Notes under the pieces: model-generated
What the model was told of the DNA's origin: nothing
The model's input: only the letters and a program-made list of their open reading frames with translations
The model's database searches: none
Made by a program: the position numbers and the translations under genes
Origin: a virus
Direction: 5' to 3' (one strand)
IMG/VR virus record: IMGVR_UViG_3300030098_001314
Location: 1-31,901 of that record
Length of the DNA: 31,901 nt
In this document: positions 1 to 31,722 of the stretch, in pieces
Layout of the letters: each line of letters opens with the position of its first letter
Position numbering within the stretch: the stretch's first letter is position 1

Positions 1-834
1 ATGGGCGTTCAAGATTTTAATAAAATTCCTTTAGAAGAAATTCCTGATGAATTAAAAAATTTAGACATTCTTGATGGGTCTCCACCTTGTTCAGTTTTTA
101 GCATGTCTGGTAAGCGTGAAAAAAAATGGGGTAAAGAGAATTATTTCCGAGAAGGTCAAAAAAAGCAAAAGCTAGACGACCTTTTTGGTCATTTTATTGA
201 AGTAGGAAAAAGACTTCAGCCCAAAATAATTGTGGCCGAAAATGTCAAAGGTTTAATTGCGGGCAATGCCAAAGGATATGTCAAAGAAATTTTTACGGCC
301 TTTCGTGAAGCTGGATATTCAACTCAATTATTCCTTTTTAACTCAGCAAAAATGGGGGTTCCTCAAACAAGAGCAAGAACTTTTTTTCTTGCTCGACGGA
401 ATAATTTAAACCTAGCAAAAATTCACTTAAGCTTTGATGAGCAGATTGTAACGATTAAGCAAGCCTTACAGGGTACAAGTCCTAAAGGAGCGAAGCCATT
501 AACTGGCAAGGCAGCAAGGTTATGGAAAGGGACTGTTCCAGGCAATAATTTTTCAAAAGCTGCAGGCGGCTCTTGGTTTACCTGGAATCGACTTTCTTGG
601 AGAAGACCTTCTCCAACAGTTGTAAGCGGGTCGCCTCCGAGTCATCCTGATGAACAGCGTTTTCTTAGCCCTAGTGAGATTATTCGCATTCAAAGCTTCC
701 CTGATGACTACAATTTCCTTAAATCTGATCCCTGTTATGTTATGGGGATGAGTGTCCCACCTTTTATGACTCAGCGAGTGGCTTTAGAAATTGCTGAGAA
801 ATGGCTTATTCCAGAGGCTTCAAATGGCGGCTAA
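1..834 (+). CDS. DNA (cytosine-5) methyltransferase, 5'-partial
   Basis: Transfers a methyl group from S-adenosylmethionine to C5 of cytosine in DNA. Visible C5-methylase motifs in order are: motif IV DGSPPCS with the catalytic Cys at residue 30 (counting from the first base), motif VI AENV (Glu80), motif VIII QTRAR (122-126), a motif IX-like RRPSPTVV, and motif X GMSVPPFMTQRVA near the C-terminus. Motif I (the SAM-binding FxGxG) is missing, so the N-terminus lies upstream of the window and the ATG at base 1 is probably an internal Met. The target-recognition region between VIII and IX is short (roughly 70 residues). It overlaps the next gene by 11 nt, so it is translated with the packaging genes. 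Likely role: protecting phage DNA from host restriction, or marking DNA for packaging (inference). Confidence 0.9.
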   Translation: MGVQDFNKIPLEEIPDELKNLDILDGSPPCSVFSMSGKREKKWGKENYFREGQKKQKLDDLFGHFIEVGKRLQPKIIVAENVKGLIAGNAKGYVKEIFTAFREAGYSTQLFLFNSAKMGVPQTRARTFFLARRNNLNLAKIHLSFDEQIVTIKQALQGTSPKGAKPLTGKAARLWKGTVPGNNFSKAAGGSWFTWNRLSWRRPSPTVVSGSPPSHPDEQRFLSPSEIIRIQSFPDDYNFLKSDPCYVMGMSVPPFMTQRVALEIAEKWLIPEASNGG

Positions 835-2547: not shown

Positions 2548-3993
2548 GTGTATAGCGGATTCAACCATTACGACAGAGAAAAAACAGGTGATTCAGCCGA
2601 GATAAACGATCCTTGTTCGGCGTGGTACAACATGGAAGCTCATTGGGGTCTTATTGAAGATTTATTAAATGGAACCTATGAAATGCGCCGTCGTCATAGG
2701 AGATATCTACCTCAAGAACCTAGAGAATTAGACGAATCTTATGACAACAGATTAGCCCGTTCAGTTTGTCCTCCTTATTATCAAAGGCTTGAAAGAATGT
2801 TGGCAGGAATGCTAACTCGAAAACCTGTCAGATTAAATGACGTTAGTGACACGATCAGAGAAAATCTTTTTGATGTAGACCTTCAAGGAAATGATCTTAA
2901 TGTCTGGACTTATGAGACTGCTCGCAAAATGATTCGCTACGGCCATGTTGGTGTGCTTGTTGATGCACCTGCTGAAGCCAACGGTCGTCCTTATTGGGTT
3001 TCATATACTCCTAGAGAAATTCTTGGATGGAGAAGTGAGTTAGTAGATGGTCAGCAGAAATTCACGCAGTTAAGACTGTTAGAAAAAGTTTTTGAACCTG
3101 ATGGTCTCTATGGTGAAAAGCAGGTTGAGCAAGTTCGATTGTTAACACCAGGAGCTTTTGAAATTCACAGAAAAGATGATGATGGCAATTATTCAATACA
3201 TGATGAAGGAACAACTTCTTTAAATGAAATCCCTTTTTCTGTTGCTTATGCCAACAGGATTAATTGGATGGAATCACGACCACCGATGGAAGACATTGCA
3301 GAATTAAACCTTAAGACTTATCAAATCCAATCAGACCTCGACAATCAATTACATTTGTCGGCTGTCCCGATGCTTGCCTTTTATGGGTTTCCACAATCTA
3401 GCGAGGAAGTATCTGCTGGCCCCGGCGAAGCAATTGCTTTCCCTGCTGAAGGTCGTGCTGAATATATAGAACCGAGTGGTCGTAGCTATGACGCACAATT
3501 TAAAAGACTTGAACAAGTTGCCTTACAGATTAATGAGCTTGGTTTGGCAGCAGTTCTAGGGCAAAAGCTATCCGCAGAAACAGCAGAAGCAAAAAGAATA
3601 GACCGCTCGCAAGGAGACTCAACAATGCAGGTGGTAGCACAACAAATGCAAGATATGATTGATAATTCCCTTTTGTATCATGCAAAATATCTAGGCACTA
3701 ATGAATCTGGCAGTTGCTTTGTAAATCGTGACTTCTTGGCTTCTCGTCTTGATCCTCAAGAGATTGGAAGCTTGCTGCAACTTTATACTGCTGGCACTAT
3801 CTCACAGGAGACAATGTTAAAACAGCTTGTCGAAGGTGAAGTCTTGGGAGATGACTTTGACGTTGAGGAAGAACTTGAATCAACTGAACAAGCTGGCTTA
3901 ATAGATATGGAACAACCAGAGGAAGAAATAGAAGAAGATGATGATGATTTAGAGGATGAAGATGAATTAGAGGAAGAAAATGAGGATAATTAG
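2548..3993 (+). CDS. Portal protein (DUF4055-like)
   Basis: Forms the dodecameric portal ring at the capsid vertex through which DNA is packaged and ejected. It has 481 residues and sits between terL and the minor head gene, the classic portal position. The N-terminal half contains a YLPQEPRE...YDNRL segment, an ML(A)GML helix, and an FDVDLQGNDLNVWTYE region that I recognise from DUF4055-type portals. The C-terminal about 40 residues are almost entirely acidic (Glu/Asp runs), a common portal tail. The GTG start at 2548 is preceded by a GAGG ribosome-binding site at about 2536-2539. The stop is 2 nt before the next start. Confidence 0.88.
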   Translation: MYSGFNHYDREKTGDSAEINDPCSAWYNMEAHWGLIEDLLNGTYEMRRRHRRYLPQEPRELDESYDNRLARSVCPPYYQRLERMLAGMLTRKPVRLNDVSDTIRENLFDVDLQGNDLNVWTYETARKMIRYGHVGVLVDAPAEANGRPYWVSYTPREILGWRSELVDGQQKFTQLRLLEKVFEPDGLYGEKQVEQVRLLTPGAFEIHRKDDDGNYSIHDEGTTSLNEIPFSVAYANRINWMESRPPMEDIAELNLKTYQIQSDLDNQLHLSAVPMLAFYGFPQSSEEVSAGPGEAIAFPAEGRAEYIEPSGRSYDAQFKRLEQVALQINELGLAAVLGQKLSAETAEAKRIDRSQGDSTMQVVAQQMQDMIDNSLLYHAKYLGTNESGSCFVNRDFLASRLDPQEIGSLLQLYTAGTISQETMLKQLVEGEVLGDDFDVEEELESTEQAGLIDMEQPEEEIEEDDDDLEDEDELEEENEDN

Positions 3994-3995
3994 CA

Positions 3996-6518
3996 ATGGC
4001 TGCTGGTGATGTTCCAGAAAGCGTTTATAGAAACACGCTTGATCTAAATCGTTTCAGCACTGGAACGTCTAAGAAACTTGTCAAACAATATGACCGAATA
4101 ATCAATGATGCCATTGACCAATTGGCAAGAATTGAAAGGATGCCAAGAGCAAAACAGCCAAAATATAAGGCTGATCGGTTGCGTTCTCTTCTAAAACAAT
4201 TAGATGCAAGTCTGAAAGGTTGGTCAAATAAAAGTGCTGCTCAGATGGTTAAGGAACTTGATGGCATAACAAGATTGCAAAGTGAGTTTGCACAGATTCA
4301 ACTAGAGAAAGCTCTTCCAAATGTCCCTGCTGTTAGCAATGCAGTTGTTAACCCTTTAAATGTCACAAAGGGATATGCAGAATCGGTTGTTAATAGTAAT
4401 CCTATTGATATAAATGCTTCTTTATTGAGTGATGATCTACAGGCAAAAGTAAAAGGGATTCCACAAAAGTTTTCTTTAACTTCTAAGCAAGGATCTCTTG
4501 TTAATCTTCCTAATGGTCAAAATTTAAAACAGGCATTTAGAGGTTTAGCAGCAAAGCAAGGAGAATTGTTTGGTCGAACTGTCCGAGATGGAATGTTGAC
4601 AGGGGAACCGACTCCACAATTAGCTCGAAGACTTAGAGATCAGTTGATTTTTGAAGACGGTAAACCTTTTAAACCGAATCAAGTAACCAACCTAGTCAGA
4701 ACAAGTGTTCAGCAAGTTAGCAATGATGCAGCTCAAGCTGTATATGCAAATAATCAGGACATCACAAAAGAATATCGGTGGGTTGCAACTCTTGATTCTC
4801 GGACGGCTCCTGAATGTCAGATTTTAGATCAGCAGAAATTCAAATATGGACAAGGCCCACAACCTCCACAACATTTTGGATGTCGTTGCAGGACTGTTGC
4901 TGAATTGGATTACGAAGGTTTAGGAATTACACCACCTAAGACACCATTAGGAAAAAGAGCAGCAGAGGGTGGCTCTGTTCCTGCTGGTACTAGCTATGGA
5001 AAATGGCTAAAAGATCAATCGGCAAGTTATAAAGCGAAAAGCTTGGGTAAAAACAAAGTCAAATATTTTAATGCCTTGTCAAAAAAATATGGCCCTGATC
5101 AAGCCTTAAAAAAACTTGTTCGTGAGGATGGATCATCTAAGACTTTAAAGCAGTTACAAAAGACATACACAAAAACACCTTCCAAGAAACTGGCAGCAAA
5201 ATCAAAACTTGTTGATTGGGATGCAGTCTCTAAATCTCCAAAGACAAAAGCTGCTTTGGAAGAATCCAAAAAACTTTCGGAAAAACTTTCTAAGGCAACT
5301 TCTGTTGCTTCTTTGTCAAAACAAATTGCTAAACAACAGCAAAAAGACTTGGCGAAGGTTGTTAAAGCTAAAAAAATTGTCCCTAAAGTTAAAGGTGCAG
5401 AGAAAGCAACTCTTCAAAAGTTGGATGCTTCTACAAAAAACAATTTAAAAAACTTTAAGGAGGCTGATTTATCAAAACCAAACCATCAAAAGTGGTTTAC
5501 AAATCAAAAGGCTTTTAATAGCAATCTAATTCCAAAAGGTAAATACGATACGATCACACCAAAAGAACTTGGCAAGCTTGTAGAGAAAAAAGAAATTGCC
5601 AAGCTTCAACAGAAATACGATAAAGCCTTTAAAAAGTCATTACTTCCTGCCAAGCCTGTTAAACCTAGAGCGCCATTAAAGAAATGGGATGATCCATCCT
5701 TCATTCAGAAAAATATTGGAAGCACCGACACAAAGACACCACCACCACCTCGGAAAGCTCTGAGGAATGGAAAGAAAAAAACTGATGACCTCTACTGGAA
5801 ATCTGATAATAAAAATGCTGTCAAAAACTATGACATGTCGGTGGCTCAACTAAAGGATGCAGAAGAGCAAATAAGTAATTGGACAGGAGATTATTTCTAT
5901 GACATTCGAGCAGTTCAAATTAAACAGGCACAATCAGTAGGAAAACAATTAAACCCGAATGAACTTCGTCTTTTAAATGAGAGGATACGGGATAACAAGT
6001 TTATGACTAACGCCCAAGTTGGTTTAGTTGCTAGGAACGCTGACAAGATGGAGAGATATATAGCAAACTCACCCAAATGGAATGGGCCAACACGCTTTAT
6101 AAACGAGACTGATAAATTACATAAAAATCCTTTTTACACAAAACAACCGAATGGAACAATTTATAGGGGCATGACTGTTCACAAGAAAAGTATTGTTGAT
6201 GAAGTAGTTAATAATATGAAAAGAGGAGAAGCCGTTTCTACAATGGAAAGTTGGTCAACAAGTCCAAGAACTGCTTTAAAATTTGCAAAAGGAGAAATAG
6301 GAGATGGTAATCATGGAATTGTATTTAGGCATGTCAACAAATATGGAACACCAATCGAACATTTGAATGGAATGAATGAAAGTGAAATATTACAGCCAAG
6401 TGGGGTTAGGTACAAGGTTATTAGTAAGAAGACAAAAAACTGGAAAGAACCTCTTGAAGAAGGTGGGCCAAAAACAGTGGAGTACTCTATGACTGAAGTT
6501 GTCTTACAAGCTATTTAA
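3996..6518 (+). CDS. Mu F-like minor head protein with C-terminal ADP-ribosyltransferase domain
   Basis: An 840-residue protein. Residues about 180-310 are a phage Mu F/SPP1 gp7 head-morphogenesis domain, with TAPEC (Cys274) and GCRCR (Cys296, Cys298) and the typical RWVATLDSRTAPEC core. Residues about 330-640 are Lys/Gln/Ser-rich and helical, probably an extended linker. Residues about 700-840 carry the three motifs of an R-S-E ADP-ribosyltransferase: IYRGM (Arg724), SWSTSPRTALKFA (STS 754-756) and ESE (Glu795, Glu797). The ExE form usually means transfer of ADP-ribose from NAD to arginine. Mu F-type proteins are virion-associated and often enter the cell with the DNA, so the enzyme may be delivered at infection (inference). 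Target unknown. Family members are commonly 250-500 residues, so this one is long. Confidence 0.88.
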   Translation: MAAGDVPESVYRNTLDLNRFSTGTSKKLVKQYDRIINDAIDQLARIERMPRAKQPKYKADRLRSLLKQLDASLKGWSNKSAAQMVKELDGITRLQSEFAQIQLEKALPNVPAVSNAVVNPLNVTKGYAESVVNSNPIDINASLLSDDLQAKVKGIPQKFSLTSKQGSLVNLPNGQNLKQAFRGLAAKQGELFGRTVRDGMLTGEPTPQLARRLRDQLIFEDGKPFKPNQVTNLVRTSVQQVSNDAAQAVYANNQDITKEYRWVATLDSRTAPECQILDQQKFKYGQGPQPPQHFGCRCRTVAELDYEGLGITPPKTPLGKRAAEGGSVPAGTSYGKWLKDQSASYKAKSLGKNKVKYFNALSKKYGPDQALKKLVREDGSSKTLKQLQKTYTKTPSKKLAAKSKLVDWDAVSKSPKTKAALEESKKLSEKLSKATSVASLSKQIAKQQQKDLAKVVKAKKIVPKVKGAEKATLQKLDASTKNNLKNFKEADLSKPNHQKWFTNQKAFNSNLIPKGKYDTITPKELGKLVEKKEIAKLQQKYDKAFKKSLLPAKPVKPRAPLKKWDDPSFIQKNIGSTDTKTPPPPRKALRNGKKKTDDLYWKSDNKNAVKNYDMSVAQLKDAEEQISNWTGDYFYDIRAVQIKQAQSVGKQLNPNELRLLNERIRDNKFMTNAQVGLVARNADKMERYIANSPKWNGPTRFINETDKLHKNPFYTKQPNGTIYRGMTVHKKSIVDEVVNNMKRGEAVSTMESWSTSPRTALKFAKGEIGDGNHGIVFRHVNKYGTPIEHLNGMNESEILQPSGVRYKVISKKTKNWKEPLEEGGPKTVEYSMTEVVLQAI

Positions 6519-6696
6519 GATAATCTGGTTTTTCTGAAAGGTTGATTGTTTCTGCTTCAATTCCTTCTGCTTTTAAAGCCTTGTCCAGATCTTTGTCTAT
6601 TTGGTCGTCAGTTCTGTCGTCATTGGGGTCGATATTGTAACTAATCCCAATCGCAGTGAACGGACTCCTGTCAAGGTAAGGTTCTTTTTTAGCCAT
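6511..6696 (-). CDS. Small minus-strand protein of unknown function
   Basis: A 61-residue, highly charged ORF (MAKKEPYLDRSPFTAIG at its start, then an Asp-rich stretch DPNDDRTDDQIDKDLDKAL) lying against the direction of all surrounding structural genes. It fills the gap after the minor head gene and overlaps that gene's end by 8 nt tail-to-tail. Composition looks like a soluble helical protein, not like an antisense shadow. I recognise no family. No clear ribosome-binding site is seen upstream of the start at 6696. It could be a moron-type gene with its own promoter. Confidence 0.5.
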   Translation of the reverse strand: MAKKEPYLDRSPFTAIGISYNIDPNDDRTDDQIDKDLDKALKAEGIEAETINLSEKPDYLK

Positions 6697-6718
6697 TGAC
6701 TTTTTTCGGCTTGCCCTT

Positions 6719-6813
6719 ATCTTAATAAGATTAGTGCTCTTTGTAAAGTCATGTCCTACAGTAAAAAGAAAAAAGGCAAGAAAGGGGGCAAAAAGAAGTA
6801 ATCTTGATAAGAT
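6719..6813. repeat. Pair of near-identical 13-bp inverted repeats
   Basis: ATCTTAATAAGAT at 6719-6731 and ATCTTGATAAGAT at 6801-6813 differ at one central base. Each is a 5-bp dyad around a 3-nt centre, and each lies about 20 nt upstream of a small plus-strand ORF (starts 6751 and 6837). The first is also in the divergent space between the minus gene starting at 6696 and the plus ORF at 6751. They may be operator sites or RNA hairpins. Function is unknown. Confidence 0.5.
6751..6801 (+). CDS. Lysine-rich mini-ORF (16 residues)
   Basis: Encodes MSYSKKKKGKKGGKKK: ten of sixteen residues are Lys. It is too short to call securely, but it sits in the structural operon just before a second Lys-rich ORF and behind one of the paired inverted repeats. 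If translated it would be a nucleic-acid-binding peptide by charge alone. No ribosome-binding site is evident. Confidence 0.3.
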   Translation: MSYSKKKKGKKGGKKK

Positions 6814-6836
6814 AAAGACTAATCATTGCTTTTCTT

Positions 6837-6944
6837 ATGAGCAAGACTTTTCTCCAAAAACTTGCTGATGCAAAAAGCAAGCCTTCTAAAGTTGAGGTAA
6901 AAACCGAGACTGTTAAGAAGAAAACCACCAAAAAAATCAAGTAA
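6837..6944 (+). CDS. Lysine-rich small protein (35 residues)
   Basis: ATG at 6837, stop at 6942-6944. The sequence begins MSKTFLQKLADAKSKPSK and ends KKKTTKKIK, with about a third Lys and no Cys or Trp. It lies 20 nt upstream of the scaffold gene in the same orientation. A basic peptide co-expressed with scaffold and capsid could be an internal DNA-neutralising protein, but that is inference. I know of no named family. Confidence 0.45.
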   Translation: MSKTFLQKLADAKSKPSKVEVKTETVKKKTTKKIK

Positions 6945-6964
6945 ACATTCACCCTGTGGGTTTT

Positions 6965-7657
6965 ATGGCTGAAGAATCAAATGCTCCTGTGGAGCAAGAT
7001 GTTTCTCCTGTGGAGAACAAAGCTCTTAAACAAGAACTGGAGTCAATGCGTAAAAAAAACGCTGAACTTTTAGACGAATATAAAAAAATCTCTCAACAAA
7101 TAAAAAATGTCCCAGACAATGTAAACATACAAGAACTAATTGATTTCAAGCACAATGCGGAACAGGCTGAACTTGAATCAAAAGGGAAATACACAGAAGC
7201 AAGGACAAAACTTGAAGACCAATATCGAGAGAAATCATCTGAAGATAAGAAACGAATTGCTGACCTTGAATCAAAAGTCCGAGAGCTTGAACTTATCTCT
7301 CCAGCAGTCTCGGCCTTGGCGGAAGTGGTACATGACCCGAATTTAGTTCTTAATAATTACATTCCAAAAGATAAAATAGAAGTTGATAGTGGTGTCCCTG
7401 TTGTTGTTGATGGATATGAAAGAACTCCAATCGTTGAATGGACTAAAAAACAATTAAGCGAAAAAGCCAACTACTTATTAAAACAAACAGCACCACAAGG
7501 AGGGGGCGCACCTGCTGGCAGGACTAGCAATTCTGAAATTCCTGCTGGAACTAAAAACCCATTTGCACCTGATAATTACAACATTACAGAGCAGATGAGA
7601 TTATATAGAACAGACAAAAATTTATATGAGAAGTTGCAATCGCAAGCGAAACGCTAA
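6965..7657 (+). CDS. Capsid scaffolding protein (probable)
   Basis: 230 residues from the ATG at 6965; a GTG at 6956 would add three residues. Residues about 18-115 are strongly heptad-like and charged (ALKQELESMRKKNAELLDEY, then ELESKGKYTEARTKLEDQ), predicting a long coiled coil. The middle is more globular, and the C-terminus after a Gly/Ala-rich linker (PQGGGAPAGRT) ends in a basic helix (NLYEKLQSQAKR). Size, coiled coil, basic C-terminal helix and position immediately before the major capsid gene are the hallmarks of a scaffold that nucleates prohead assembly. No capsid protease is seen nearby, so scaffold exit is probably non-proteolytic. Confidence 0.78.
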   Translation: MAEESNAPVEQDVSPVENKALKQELESMRKKNAELLDEYKKISQQIKNVPDNVNIQELIDFKHNAEQAELESKGKYTEARTKLEDQYREKSSEDKKRIADLESKVRELELISPAVSALAEVVHDPNLVLNNYIPKDKIEVDSGVPVVVDGYERTPIVEWTKKQLSEKANYLLKQTAPQGGGAPAGRTSNSEIPAGTKNPFAPDNYNITEQMRLYRTDKNLYEKLQSQAKR

Positions 7658-7730
7658 TATACTTACAACGACGAAGCTGTGCTAAGTCTTACGGGTTTGT
7701 GACCCACATCGTAAAAATCTTTATTTAGGA
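7634..7730 (+). promoter_or_regulatory. Possible promoter, leader hairpin and RBS before the capsid gene
   Basis: TTGCAA (7634-7639), an 18-nt spacer, then TATACT (7658-7663) resembles a sigma70-type promoter at the scaffold stop codon. Downstream, 7689-7714 can fold: TTACGGGT pairs with ACC...CGTAA around loop TTGTG with a 5-nt bulge. AGGA at 7727-7730 is the ribosome-binding site, 6 nt before the capsid ATG. A separate promoter plus a structured leader would help overproduce the capsid protein. The -35 is weak, so the promoter call is tentative. Confidence 0.35.
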
Positions 7731-7736
7731 AATTTT

Positions 7737-8762
7737 ATGGCGACTTTAAGGTCGGACATAATCGTTCCAGAGGTTTTCACGCCTTACGTTATTGAGCAAA
7801 CAACTCAGCGTGATGCATTTTTGCAGAGCGGTGTGGTTCAGCCTTTGGCAGAGCTTAATGCGACAGAAGGTGGAGACTTTGTGAACGTCCCTTACTGGAA
7901 AGCAAATCTTTCTGGTGATTTCGAAGTTCTTTCAGATAGTGCTTCTTTAACTCCCGGCAAAATCCAAGCAGATAAGCAGATCGGTGTGATTCTTCACAGA
8001 GGTCGTGCTTTTGAAGCCAGAGATTTAGCGGCTCTTGCTGCTGGTGCTGATCCAATGGCAGCTATTGGTAATAAGATCGCTGCTTATATTGCTAACCAAC
8101 GTCAAAAAGACTTGATCTCTTGTCTTTCTGGTGTGTTTGGTTCTATCAATGCAAACGATAGTAACTCTGCGTTATTTGATCTTTGTATTGATTCAGAAAG
8201 TGGAGACTCACCAACAGCTTTAGCTCCTAAGCATGTTGCGAAAGCAAAAGCATTATTAGGAGATGCTGGTGACAAGTTAACTGCTATTGCTGTTCATTCA
8301 AAGGTCTACTACGACCTTGTTGAGCGTAAATTAGTTGATTACGTTGTTGCTGCTGACACCAACCAAACAGCGACCGCAACTGGTGGCTCTATTGCTGGTG
8401 CTTATAGTGGCAACGGTTCTGTTCCTACATACTGCGGCCTTCGTGTAATCGTTTCTGACGATGTAGCGACTACAGGTTCAGGTGCTTCAACAGAATATTC
8501 AACTTACTTCTTTACTCAAGGAGCAGTTGCCTCTGGCGAGCAAGCTGGAATGAATATGGAAACTGACAGAGACATCCTTGCTAAAAGTGATGCTATGGCT
8601 GTTGACCTTCATTACGCATATCACCCTGTTGGCACTAAATGGGCGGTGACACAAACGAATCCGACCAGAAGCCAGCTAGAAACCGTAGCCAATTGGTCGA
8701 AGGTCTACGAGACAAAGAATATTGGAATCGTGAGAGCGACCAATATTTCCAACATGGATTGA
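7737..8762 (+). CDS. Major capsid protein
   Basis: A 341-residue protein that forms the icosahedral shell. It begins ATLRSDIIVPEVFTPYVIEQ, a start I associate with phage coat proteins of the HK97 fold, followed by TEGGDFVNVPYW and the VILHRGRAFEARDLAALAAGADPMAAIG segment typical of the spine helix region. It lies directly downstream of the scaffold gene with a good AGGA ribosome-binding site. No N-terminal prodomain of HK97 size is obvious, which fits a separate scaffold. Codon use is smoother and richer in GCT/GGT than in its neighbours, as expected for high expression (visual impression only). Confidence 0.9.
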   Translation: MATLRSDIIVPEVFTPYVIEQTTQRDAFLQSGVVQPLAELNATEGGDFVNVPYWKANLSGDFEVLSDSASLTPGKIQADKQIGVILHRGRAFEARDLAALAAGADPMAAIGNKIAAYIANQRQKDLISCLSGVFGSINANDSNSALFDLCIDSESGDSPTALAPKHVAKAKALLGDAGDKLTAIAVHSKVYYDLVERKLVDYVVAADTNQTATATGGSIAGAYSGNGSVPTYCGLRVIVSDDVATTGSGASTEYSTYFFTQGAVASGEQAGMNMETDRDILAKSDAMAVDLHYAYHPVGTKWAVTQTNPTRSQLETVANWSKVYETKNIGIVRATNISNMD

Positions 8763-30448: not shown

Positions 30449-30635
30449 ATCTGATAATTTGAATGAGCTTCTTCTTGCTTAAATGACTTTTAGTTTTTGC
30501 TATCTCCCTTAACATTCTGTTGGTATGAAATCTTAAGTACCGAGGATCTAATTCATTTTGAAACGGTTTTGGTTTCTGATAGATGAATAATCTACCAATC
30601 TGATCAAGAATAAATTTAAAAGGATTTTTCTTCAT
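30438..30635 (-). CDS. Small basic protein, cyanobacterial-type (65 residues)
   Basis: Start ATG at 30635, chosen over 30671 because upstream codons lie within galE. It begins MKKNPFKFILDQIGRLFIYQ and contains YLRFHTNRMLREIAKTKSHL then SKKKLIQII, a pattern I associate with short conserved proteins of marine picocyanobacteria and their phages. Its start codon overlaps the galE start codon on the opposite strand (CATG). Function unknown. Confidence 0.55.
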   Translation of the reverse strand: MKKNPFKFILDQIGRLFIYQKPKPFQNELDPRYLRFHTNRMLREIAKTKSHLSKKKLIQIIRSTS

Positions 30636-31722
30636 GTCTAGAATTTTAGTTACAGGTGGAGCCGGTTTCATTGGTAGTCATACTTGTCTTCTTTTATTAG
30701 AGCAAGGTCATGATCTTGTAGTCGTTGACTCCTTTGTAAACAGTAATCCGAAATCTTTAATGCAAGTTTTATTTCTTGCAGGGATTGAACAAGAAAAACA
30801 AAACAGATTGATGGTTCACAATACAGATGTAAGAAACAAAGAATTTTTAAGATTTATTTTTAAAACAGCTATAAGCGAAGGAAGGCCTATTAATGCTGTA
30901 ATTCATTTTGCTGGGTTGAAGTGTGTAAGTGAATCAATAGAAAATCATCTTGAGTACTGGGATGTAAATGTAGTTGGTTCTAGAACTTTATTCACAACAA
31001 TGGAGGAATTTAACTGTAAAACAATAGTTTTTAGTAGCAGTTGTGCTGTTTATGGTGTTGCTGAAAATTATCCAACATCTGAAAAAGAAAAAATAAATCC
31101 TGCAAATCCTTATGGACATACCAAAGCCACAGTTGAAAAAATACTACGAAATCTAAAAGCAATACATCCTGACTGGAGAATTATGAGCCTTAGATATTTC
31201 AATCCTGTTGGAGCTCATCCCAGTGGACTGTTGGGTGAAGATCCTTCTGGCGTTCCTAATAATCTAATGCCATTAATAAATCAAACTGCATCAGGAAGAA
31301 TCAAGGTATTAAAAGTCTACGGTGGAGACTGGGACACTCCTGACGGTACTCCGATCCGAGATTATATTCATATTATGGATTTATCTCGTGGTCATGTAGC
31401 CGCTTTAAATTATCTTTTAGAAAAAGAAAGTGAGTGTCTTGCTTTAAATTTAGGAACAGGAGTTGGGTACTCAGTTTTGCAAGTGATTGAGGCTTATAAA
31501 AGTACTTCTGATATTGATATTCCTTATGAGATAGTAGAAAGAAGAAAAGGAGATGTCCCGATAACTTTGGCTGACCCAACTAAAGCAATAGAGACATTAA
31601 AATGGAAAGCGACAGGAACTTTAGAAGATATGTGTAGAGATGGATGGGTTTGGCAACATCTGAATCCAGAAGGTTATAACTCAGTTTTGAGGTTCGCTGA
31701 TAAGAATCCAAGCACCAAATAA
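30634..31722 (+). CDS. galE: UDP-glucose 4-epimerase
   Basis: Interconverts UDP-glucose and UDP-galactose with bound NAD. 362 residues, slightly longer than E. coli GalE (338). The Rossmann motif GGAGFIG (8-14) holds the glycines Gly8, Gly11 and Gly14. FSSSCAVYG gives the catalytic Ser136, and YGHTK gives Tyr160 and Lys164, so the active-site triad is intact. LRYFNPVGAH, RDYIHIMDL and LNLGTGVGYSVLQVI also match the family. AAAGGA lies 9 nt before the ATG. In a phage it may supply sugar nucleotides for virion glycosylation or alter the host surface. It may alternatively mark a host-derived segment at the window's right end. Confidence 0.95.
   Translation: MSRILVTGGAGFIGSHTCLLLLEQGHDLVVVDSFVNSNPKSLMQVLFLAGIEQEKQNRLMVHNTDVRNKEFLRFIFKTAISEGRPINAVIHFAGLKCVSESIENHLEYWDVNVVGSRTLFTTMEEFNCKTIVFSSSCAVYGVAENYPTSEKEKINPANPYGHTKATVEKILRNLKAIHPDWRIMSLRYFNPVGAHPSGLLGEDPSGVPNNLMPLINQTASGRIKVLKVYGGDWDTPDGTPIRDYIHIMDLSRGHVAALNYLLEKESECLALNLGTGVGYSVLQVIEAYKSTSDIDIPYEIVERRKGDVPITLADPTKAIETLKWKATGTLEDMCRDGWVWQHLNPEGYNSVLRFADKNPSTK

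What the first reader, a model, noticed from the sequence alone, without database searches (positions are those of the whole stretch)
3996..6518. Minor head protein ends in an apparently active arginine-type ADP-ribosyltransferase
The 840-residue Mu F-like protein carries Arg724, STS 754-756 and Glu795-x-Glu797 in the right order for R-S-E transferases, after a 300-residue Lys/Gln-rich linker. As a virion component it could be carried in and modify a host protein at once, like T4 Alt in principle. Mu F plus transferase fusions are known in other phages; the long linker and a likely cyanobacterial host would be the new part.
Basis: partly seen in the sequence, partly recalled or inferred. Interest (0 to 1): 0.65.

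Follow-up and report, generated by a model that had tools for sequence, protein, structure and literature searches.

The report
Swappable virion ADP-ribosyltransferase with partner gene
A virus of marine cyanobacteria carries, on the end of one of its head proteins, an enzyme of the bacterial-toxin ADP-ribosyltransferase kind, and this enzyme moves between related viruses as a cassette with a tiny gene on the opposite strand that is probably its antidote or loading partner.

Summary
In detail: an 840-residue MuF head protein ends in an ADP-ribosyltransferase (ART) domain (residues ~605-840) with R724, STS 754-756 and E795-x-E797. AlphaFold (pLDDT 86.5, pTM 0.82) and Foldseek place it among arginine-type R-S-E ARTs. 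R and ExE are invariant in 34 relatives. MuF-ART fusions were known, including in isolated cyanophages P-SS2 and S-2L. The '300-residue linker' is ~100 variable residues plus a conserved pre-ART segment.

The new part lies outside the coordinates. A convergent 61-residue ORF (6511-6696, minus) overlaps the gene's last 8 bases. It is coding (median dN/dS ~0.11), occurs only beside MuF-ART genes (29/29 viral contigs), co-varies with the ART (rho 0.78) but barely with flanking head genes, and has a conserved promoter-like element upstream. Against L060, flanks are 94-98% identical while a 1.5-kb block holding linker, ART and small ORF is 58%. Sister phages carry Zeta-toxin or kinase-like modules with unrelated small ORFs in the same place; domain-less MuF genes have none (0/46). 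P-SS2 virions contained both products. No integrase was found.

Best reading: an exchangeable virion effector plus cognate partner, most likely an inhibitor, in apparently non-temperate cyanophages.

The parts
3996..6518 (+). MuF minor head protein with C-terminal ART, 840 aa
3996..5135 (+). MuF head part, residues 1-380 (Pfam core 195-300); relatives without a C-terminal domain end shortly after this
5136..5435 (+). variable Lys-rich linker, residues 381-480 (26% K); the recombination junction against L060 falls here (about 5200)
5436..5807 (+). conserved pre-ART segment, residues 481-604, inherited with the ART
5808..6515 (+). ADP-ribosyltransferase domain, residues 605-840; R724 codon 6165-6167, STS 754-756 codons 6255-6263, ExE 795-797 codons 6378-6386
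6511..6696 (-). convergent 61-aa ORF overlapping the last 8 bases of the MuF-ART gene; candidate cognate inhibitor/antidote or loading partner
6718..6747 (-). conserved promoter-like element (TTTACA-17-TAAGAT, palindromic CTAATCTTATTAAGATA), 22 bases upstream of the small ORF
5200..6750 (.). block replaced as a unit between otherwise near-identical phages (58% identity to L060, flanks 94% and 98%)

Best explanation
The gene makes a minor head protein whose C-terminal domain is an arginine-type mono-ADP-ribosyltransferase. MuF places it in the virion, and it is presumably delivered into the cyanobacterial host with the DNA, where it ADP-ribosylates host target(s) early in infection. The ART module and a 53-61-residue protein on the opposite strand form one cassette. 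The small protein most likely binds and restrains the ART while heads are being made. The cassette is exchanged between related phages by recombination in the Lys-rich linker and just upstream of the small gene. Zeta-toxin and kinase-like modules, each with its own convergent small ORF, can take the same place. Confidence per step: ART fold and intact catalytic residues ~0.97 (predicted); virion protein ~0.85 (shown for the P-SS2 homologue only); small ORF a real gene ~0.97; linked exchanging cassette ~0.9 (shown by sequence); delivery and action on a host target ~0.65 (inferred, target unknown); small protein an inhibitor/antidote ~0.55 (inferred).
For: ART: invariant R/ExE in 34 relatives, Pfam ADPrib_exo_Tox in 6 members and above cut-off in L062, AF2 pLDDT 86.5 / pTM 0.82, all 39 PDB matches at E<=1e-3 are ARTs. 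Virion: MuF domain; P-SS2 homologue 96.5 virion peptides and its convergent ORF 031 1.5 peptides (PMC2784084). Small gene: dN/dS 0.11-0.13; 29/29 contigs found with it are MuF-ART contigs. Cassette: rho 0.78 with ART, about 0.1 with flanking genes; L060 block 58% against flanks 94-98%. Slot: convergent ORF in 6/7 long non-zincin MuF genes, 0/46 short ones. Precedent: prophage MuF-ART Bxa is blocked by the adjacent small protein Bsi (PMC11699363), and the distant relative in Porphyromonas phages has a convergent ORF plus an ADP-ribosylglycohydrolase.
Against: No biochemical test of ART or small protein. The window's own ART domain has no Pfam match and superposes on solved ARTs only at TM 0.45-0.50. 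Physical adjacency alone gives some linkage of ART and small ORF. The small protein models poorly (pLDDT 69.5), so binding is not supported structurally. P-SS2 ORF 031 matches in position, not in sequence, and rests on few peptides; its presence in virions would also fit a structural or loading role. A phage without lysogeny has less obvious need of an antidote. S-2L lacks the convergent ORF.
Confidence: 0.55

Rival explanations
1. The ART is a virion effector in the manner of T4 Alt, and the small convergent protein is not an antidote but a co-packaged partner or chaperone that loads the effector module into the head or keeps it soluble.
For: P-SS2 ORF 031, the positional counterpart, was detected in virions (PMC2784084); unrelated effector modules each have a small ORF there; a phage without an integrase may not need immunity.
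Against: Experimentally studied MuF toxins use the adjacent small ORF as inhibitor (PMC11699363); an own minus-strand promoter-like element suggests expression apart from the late head genes; zincin-bearing MuF proteins of similar size have no such ORF.
Confidence: 0.25
2. The small ORF is a hitch-hiking gene without a functional tie to the ART; linkage reflects only adjacency and recombination hot spots.
For: It overlaps the ART gene's end, so any crossover outside moves both; the family has no recognisable fold or function.
Against: Purifying selection; never found away from MuF-ART; different modules have different small ORFs in the same register while 46 domain-less genes have none; no linkage to the scaffold gene a few hundred bases beyond.
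Confidence: 0.12
3. The C-terminal domain is a catalytically dead or purely structural ART-fold decoration of the head.
For: No activity data; the window domain is below Pfam detection.
Against: R, E and E are invariant in 34 sequences down to 22% identity; the fold is intact; many related phages lack the domain altogether (46 short MuF genes), so it is not needed for head structure.
Confidence: 0.04

Closest known systems
MuF polymorphic toxins of temperate phages (Jamet et al. 2017, PMC5576092)
   Same: N-terminal MuF, variable C-terminal toxin-like domain (14% of their 191 MuF toxins are putative ARTs), small ORF immediately beyond the gene.
   Different: Theirs are restricted to temperate phages and prophages; here no integrase was found, the small ORF is convergent and overlaps the stop codon, and it has its own promoter-like element.
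Bxa / Bsi / BAH of a Bacteroides stercoris prophage (PMC11699363)
   Same: MuF plus arginine-modifying ART with adjacent small protein; the Porphyromonas relative in the present family also has an ADP-ribosylglycohydrolase next door.
   Different: The cyanophage cassettes have no hydrolase; their small proteins are 49-61 aa, and homology to Bsi was not tested.
MuF-fused Alt/VIP2-family ARTs (Iyer et al. 2022, PMC9503650)
   Same: Same domain architecture and predicted packaging.
   Different: That survey stresses myoviruses (only 3% of siphoviruses have ARTs); it reports no cassette exchange or convergent partner gene in the passages read.
Phage T4 Alt
   Same: Virion-borne ART thought to act at once after injection (works like, in principle).
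   Different: Alt is a separate internal head protein, not a MuF fusion; no cognate convergent gene known to me.
Tre1/Tri1 (type VI effector and immunity)
   Same: Best sequence-level and a top structural match with R, STS and ExE in register; toxin/immunity pair.
   Different: Other delivery system; sequence similarity is weak (E 0.18).
Cyanophages P-SS2 and S-2L minor head proteins
   Same: Homologous ART on a MuF protein (36% and 26% identity); P-SS2 also has a convergent small ORF.
   Different: P-SS2 is a 108-kb phage with an integrase and a further C-terminal extension; S-2L lacks the convergent ORF.

Membership tests
R-S-E (arginine-type) ADP-ribosyltransferases | R, S-T-S (or S/T-x-x) and E-x-E motifs in order | tested here: met
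   R724, S754 (S or T in relatives), E795/E797; R and both E invariant in 34
R-S-E (arginine-type) ADP-ribosyltransferases | ART fold | tested here: met
   AF2 pLDDT 86.5; all PDB matches at E<=1e-3 are ARTs
R-S-E (arginine-type) ADP-ribosyltransferases | R and ExE in one NAD pocket | tested here: inconclusive
R-S-E (arginine-type) ADP-ribosyltransferases | NAD-dependent transfer to arginine | not testable with these tools
   needs an assay
Pfam PF03496 ADPrib_exo_Tox | score above the curated cut-off | tested here: not met
   No match for the window domain; 6 relatives match, L062 passes the cut-off
MuF / SPP1 gp7 minor head proteins | MuF domain above cut-off, located between portal and scaffold/capsid genes | tested here: met
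   PF04233 50.5 bits (cut-off 29.6), TIGR01641 47.1 bits (cut-off 39.65); neighbours portal, scaffold, major head protein
MuF polymorphic toxin systems | same MuF part with different C-terminal effector domains | tested here: met
   ART, Zeta toxin, kinase-like, zincin-like or none on homologous MuF parts
MuF polymorphic toxin systems | adjacent small immunity gene | tested here: inconclusive
   small gene present, linked and under selection, but convergent, and inhibition untested
MuF polymorphic toxin systems | carried by temperate phages | tested here: not met
   no integrase in the window or seven ART-bearing contigs with phrog_1, which detects the P-SS2 integrase; the window is a possible fragment
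T4 Alt-like injected ART | present in the virion | tested here: inconclusive
   shown only for the P-SS2 homologue in the literature
T4 Alt-like injected ART | injected with DNA and modifies host RNA polymerase | not testable with these tools
   no target data

The most novel reading that the evidence does not exclude
Non-temperate marine cyanophages run a polymorphic effector-antidote system inside the virion: one head protein offers a slot for different injected enzymes (ART, Zeta-type kinase, protein-kinase-like), each exchanged together with its own convergently encoded cognate inhibitor, in several cases behind the same phage promoter element. This would give virulent phages a toxin-immunity logic so far reported only for temperate ones.
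Probability: 0.45. Interest if true: 0.8.

Novelty: new variant of a known kind. Interest (0 to 1): 0.62.

Why it matters
It takes the MuF effector idea from temperate phages of gut and pathogenic bacteria to apparently lytic phages of the main ocean phototrophs. It also supplies a testable pair: does a 61-residue protein silence a head-borne ART? Why a phage without lysogeny would keep an antidote for its own injected enzyme is an open question. The clean module swaps between otherwise near-identical phages suggest that the target, or the host's defence, is under rapid selection.

Tried and rejected
(1) Single-sequence Pfam, NCBIfam and PDB sequence searches of the C-terminus gave nothing significant; relatives, profiles and a structure model were needed. 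(2) A genome-contig scan with the ART alignment found no relative, so no prophage or host copy is shown. (3) PF00589 as an integrase test was rejected as a negative because it also missed the annotated P-SS2 integrase; phrog_1 detects it. (4) An ADP-ribosylglycohydrolase antidote, as in the Porphyromonas phage, was looked for and not found in the window, four ART-bearing contigs and three isolates. (5) The small protein's structure model was too poor to search by fold. (6) dN/dS of the 54-aa small ORFs (0.53) was discounted because those sequences have indels in different places and were compared without gaps. (8) The chance-ORF explanation of the convergent ORF was rejected.

Full report
Observation. 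The ORF at 3996-6518 (+) encodes 840 residues. The N-terminal part is a MuF head protein (PF04233 at residues 195-300, E 3.9e-13; PHROG 241, E 3.3e-73). It lies between portal (2548-3993) and scaffold (6956-7657), upstream of the major head protein (7737-8762).

The C-terminal domain. Single-sequence searches are weak: no Pfam match, and the best PDB sequence match is Tre1 (6dre/6drh) at E 0.18, although R, STS and ExE align in register. Relatives settle it. A viral-contig scan gave 12 relatives, a profile scan 44. In an alignment of 34, with identities to the window from 93% down to 22%, R724, S752, W753, E795 and E797 are invariant, and position 754 is Ser or Thr. Six members match ADPrib_exo_Tox, best E 1.4e-4, and the divergent relative L062 passes its cut-off (24.2 bits against 23.4). 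AlphaFold on this alignment gives mean pLDDT 86.5 and pTM 0.82, with helices before a beta core. All 39 PDB matches at E<=1e-3 are ARTs: Vis first (1.2e-6), then the Tre1 toxin/immunity structure (5.5e-6), C2-I, ExoS and others; the best superpositions are modest (TM about 0.45-0.50). The best predicted viral structures include a 1,499-residue protein that by length and identity is P-SS2 gp30 (C7F476), and several head morphogenesis and ART proteins. Pocket geometry could not be measured.

The linker. Residues 381-480 vary strongly and are 26% Lys. Residues 501-605 are conserved and follow the ART: 96% identical in L002, whose ART is about 94% identical, and 44% in L047, whose ART is about 41-46%. 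So the truly variable linker is about 100 residues, not 300, and it is Lys-rich but not Gln-rich.

Host and lifestyle. All phages in the isolate collection with DNA similarity to the portal gene are Synechococcus or Prochlorococcus phages. The window is a linear 31.9-kb viral record, possibly a fragment. PHROG 1 (integrase) finds nothing in the window or in seven ART-bearing contigs of 28-44 kb, but does find the P-SS2 integrase, which serves as a positive control. PF00589 had missed that integrase and is not used. KBS2A, a domain-less relative, was described as possibly exclusively lytic (PMC3751600).

A second gene. A 61-codon ORF on the minus strand, 6511-6696, overlaps the last 8 bases of the MuF-ART gene. 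Almost every relative with sequence there has such an ORF: 61 aa overlapping by 8 bases, or 49-55 aa overlapping by 4; P-SS2 has one too, and S-2L does not. It is coding: median dN/dS 0.11 over 132 pairs of the 61-aa set and 0.13 over 43 pairs of the 53-aa set. A separate scan of the viral collection with this small protein returned 29 contigs, all already known as MuF-ART contigs.

The two form an exchanging cassette. Over 22 loci, pairwise identities of ART and small protein correlate at rho 0.78 (Mantel p 0.001). ART against MuF N-terminus is 0.03, ART against scaffold -0.05, small protein against scaffold 0.10, small protein against MuF N-terminus 0.13 (p 0.048), and portal against scaffold 0.72. 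The clearest case is L060 (the same contig as L047): 93.7% DNA identity over 3451-5199, 58.3% over 5200-6750, and 97.8% over 6770-8400. The divergent block begins in the linker and ends just beyond the start and upstream element of the small gene. The opposite case is L002: MuF N-terminus 65% and scaffold 61%, but ART 94% and small protein 77%. Adjacency will produce some linkage by itself. The uncoupling from the scaffold gene on the other side argues that the pair is kept together.

Other modules in the slot. Sampling by the portal gene, independently of the ART, gave 46 scorable domain-less MuF genes and 10 scorable long ones. The long ones carry ARTs (L060, L073), Zeta toxin (L065, L072; Pfam E 4e-26 and 5e-20), kinase-like domains (L065, L066, L068, L094; Pfam support for L065 and L066, the other two by eye from shared motifs) and HExxH zincin-like domains (L123, L135, L137); L077 and MED4-184 are further zincin-like cases. 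A convergent ORF overlapping the stop by 4 or 8 bases is found in 6 of 7 long non-zincin cases, none of 46 short cases (Fisher p 3e-7) and none of the zincin cases. Contigs are not fully independent, so the p-value is indicative. The small ORFs beside Zeta or kinase-like modules differ in sequence from those beside ARTs.

Upstream element. TTTACA-17-TAAGAT within TTTACAnnnnnnnCTAATCTTATTAAGATA lies 22 bases upstream of the small ORF's start (6718-6747, minus). It is the only match in the window with up to 3 mismatches; chance expectation is 0.00. The exact 17-mer CTAATCTTATTAAGATA was found in 13 other contigs among the loci held, each time once, on the minus strand about 170-220 bases beyond a long MuF gene's end, including the Zeta-bearing L072 and the divergent ART L073. 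Variants with 1-2 mismatches occur elsewhere in sister phages, so it looks like a phage promoter type rather than a private element. Not all ART-bearing relatives have it.

Published support. In P-SS2 virion proteomics, ORF 030 (the MuF-ART homologue, then called major capsid protein) averaged 96.5 peptides. ORF 031, the convergent small ORF at its end, averaged 1.5 and was listed as an unknown structural protein (PMC2784084 Table 2). The position matches; the sequence of ORF 031 is not recognisably homologous. For the prophage MuF-ART Bxa, the adjacent small protein Bsi blocks the enzyme and a hydrolase, BAH, reverses its product (PMC11699363). The distant relative in Porphyromonas phages has a similar set: a convergent 108-aa ORF, then an ADP-ribosylglycohydrolase (E 6e-37). 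No hydrolase was found in the cyanophage records tested.

Mechanism. Shown by sequence: ART-type domain with conserved catalytic residues, a MuF carrier, a real linked small gene, and cassette exchange. Inferred: packaging (from P-SS2), delivery, arginine modification of a host protein, and inhibition by the small protein. I hold the inhibitor reading at about 0.55, the loading-partner reading at about 0.25 and hitch-hiking at about 0.12.

Comparison and novelty. Jamet et al. found no known toxin domain on the MuF proteins of virulent phages and treat MuF toxins as a temperate-phage trait. The cyanophage set appears to break that restriction and adds a convergent partner gene with its own promoter-like element. 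My literature searches found no report of this, but only open-licence papers were searched. I therefore rate it a new variant of a known kind.

Noticed in passing
L018 (MED4-184) 4995-7280; L077 1558-3912; L123, L135, L137: MuF head proteins of sister cyanophages ending in an HExxH zincin-like domain (weak Pfam ATLF match, E 0.001 for MED4-184) instead of an ART; no convergent small ORF beside them.
   Followed up: partly
L065 2301-5159; L072 7281-9398; L066 2935-5058; L068 2217-4295; L094 6426-8624: MuF head proteins of sister phages ending in a Zeta-toxin-like kinase and/or a protein-kinase-like domain; four of the five have their own convergent 50-88-aa ORF overlapping the stop codon by 4 bases.
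   Followed up: partly
L014 (P-SS2), about residues 1215-1420 of the 1,500-aa head protein: After the ART homologous to the window's, P-SS2 has another segment (FFRGV...GKGIYGNGTY...) that by eye resembles a second ART-like domain; no Pfam match.
   Followed up: no
L019 5380-6481 (-); L058 6509-7610 (-): In Porphyromonas phages a 108-aa ORF and an ADP-ribosylglycohydrolase gene run convergent to the MuF-ART gene, followed in L019 by a regulator and an integrase: antidotes seemingly on the lysogeny side.
   Followed up: partly
window 6798-6814 (+): A 3-mismatch copy of the palindromic promoter-like element on the plus strand, upstream of the scaffold gene; may drive the plus strand.
   Followed up: no
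window 6837-6944 (+): A 35-codon Lys-rich ORF between the small convergent gene and the scaffold gene, 90-95% conserved over 21 residues in the closest relatives.
   Followed up: no
window 1-834 (+) and 30634-31722 (+): DNA methyltransferase-like ORF at the left edge and nucleotide-sugar epimerase-like ORF at the right edge (PHROG matches).
   Followed up: no
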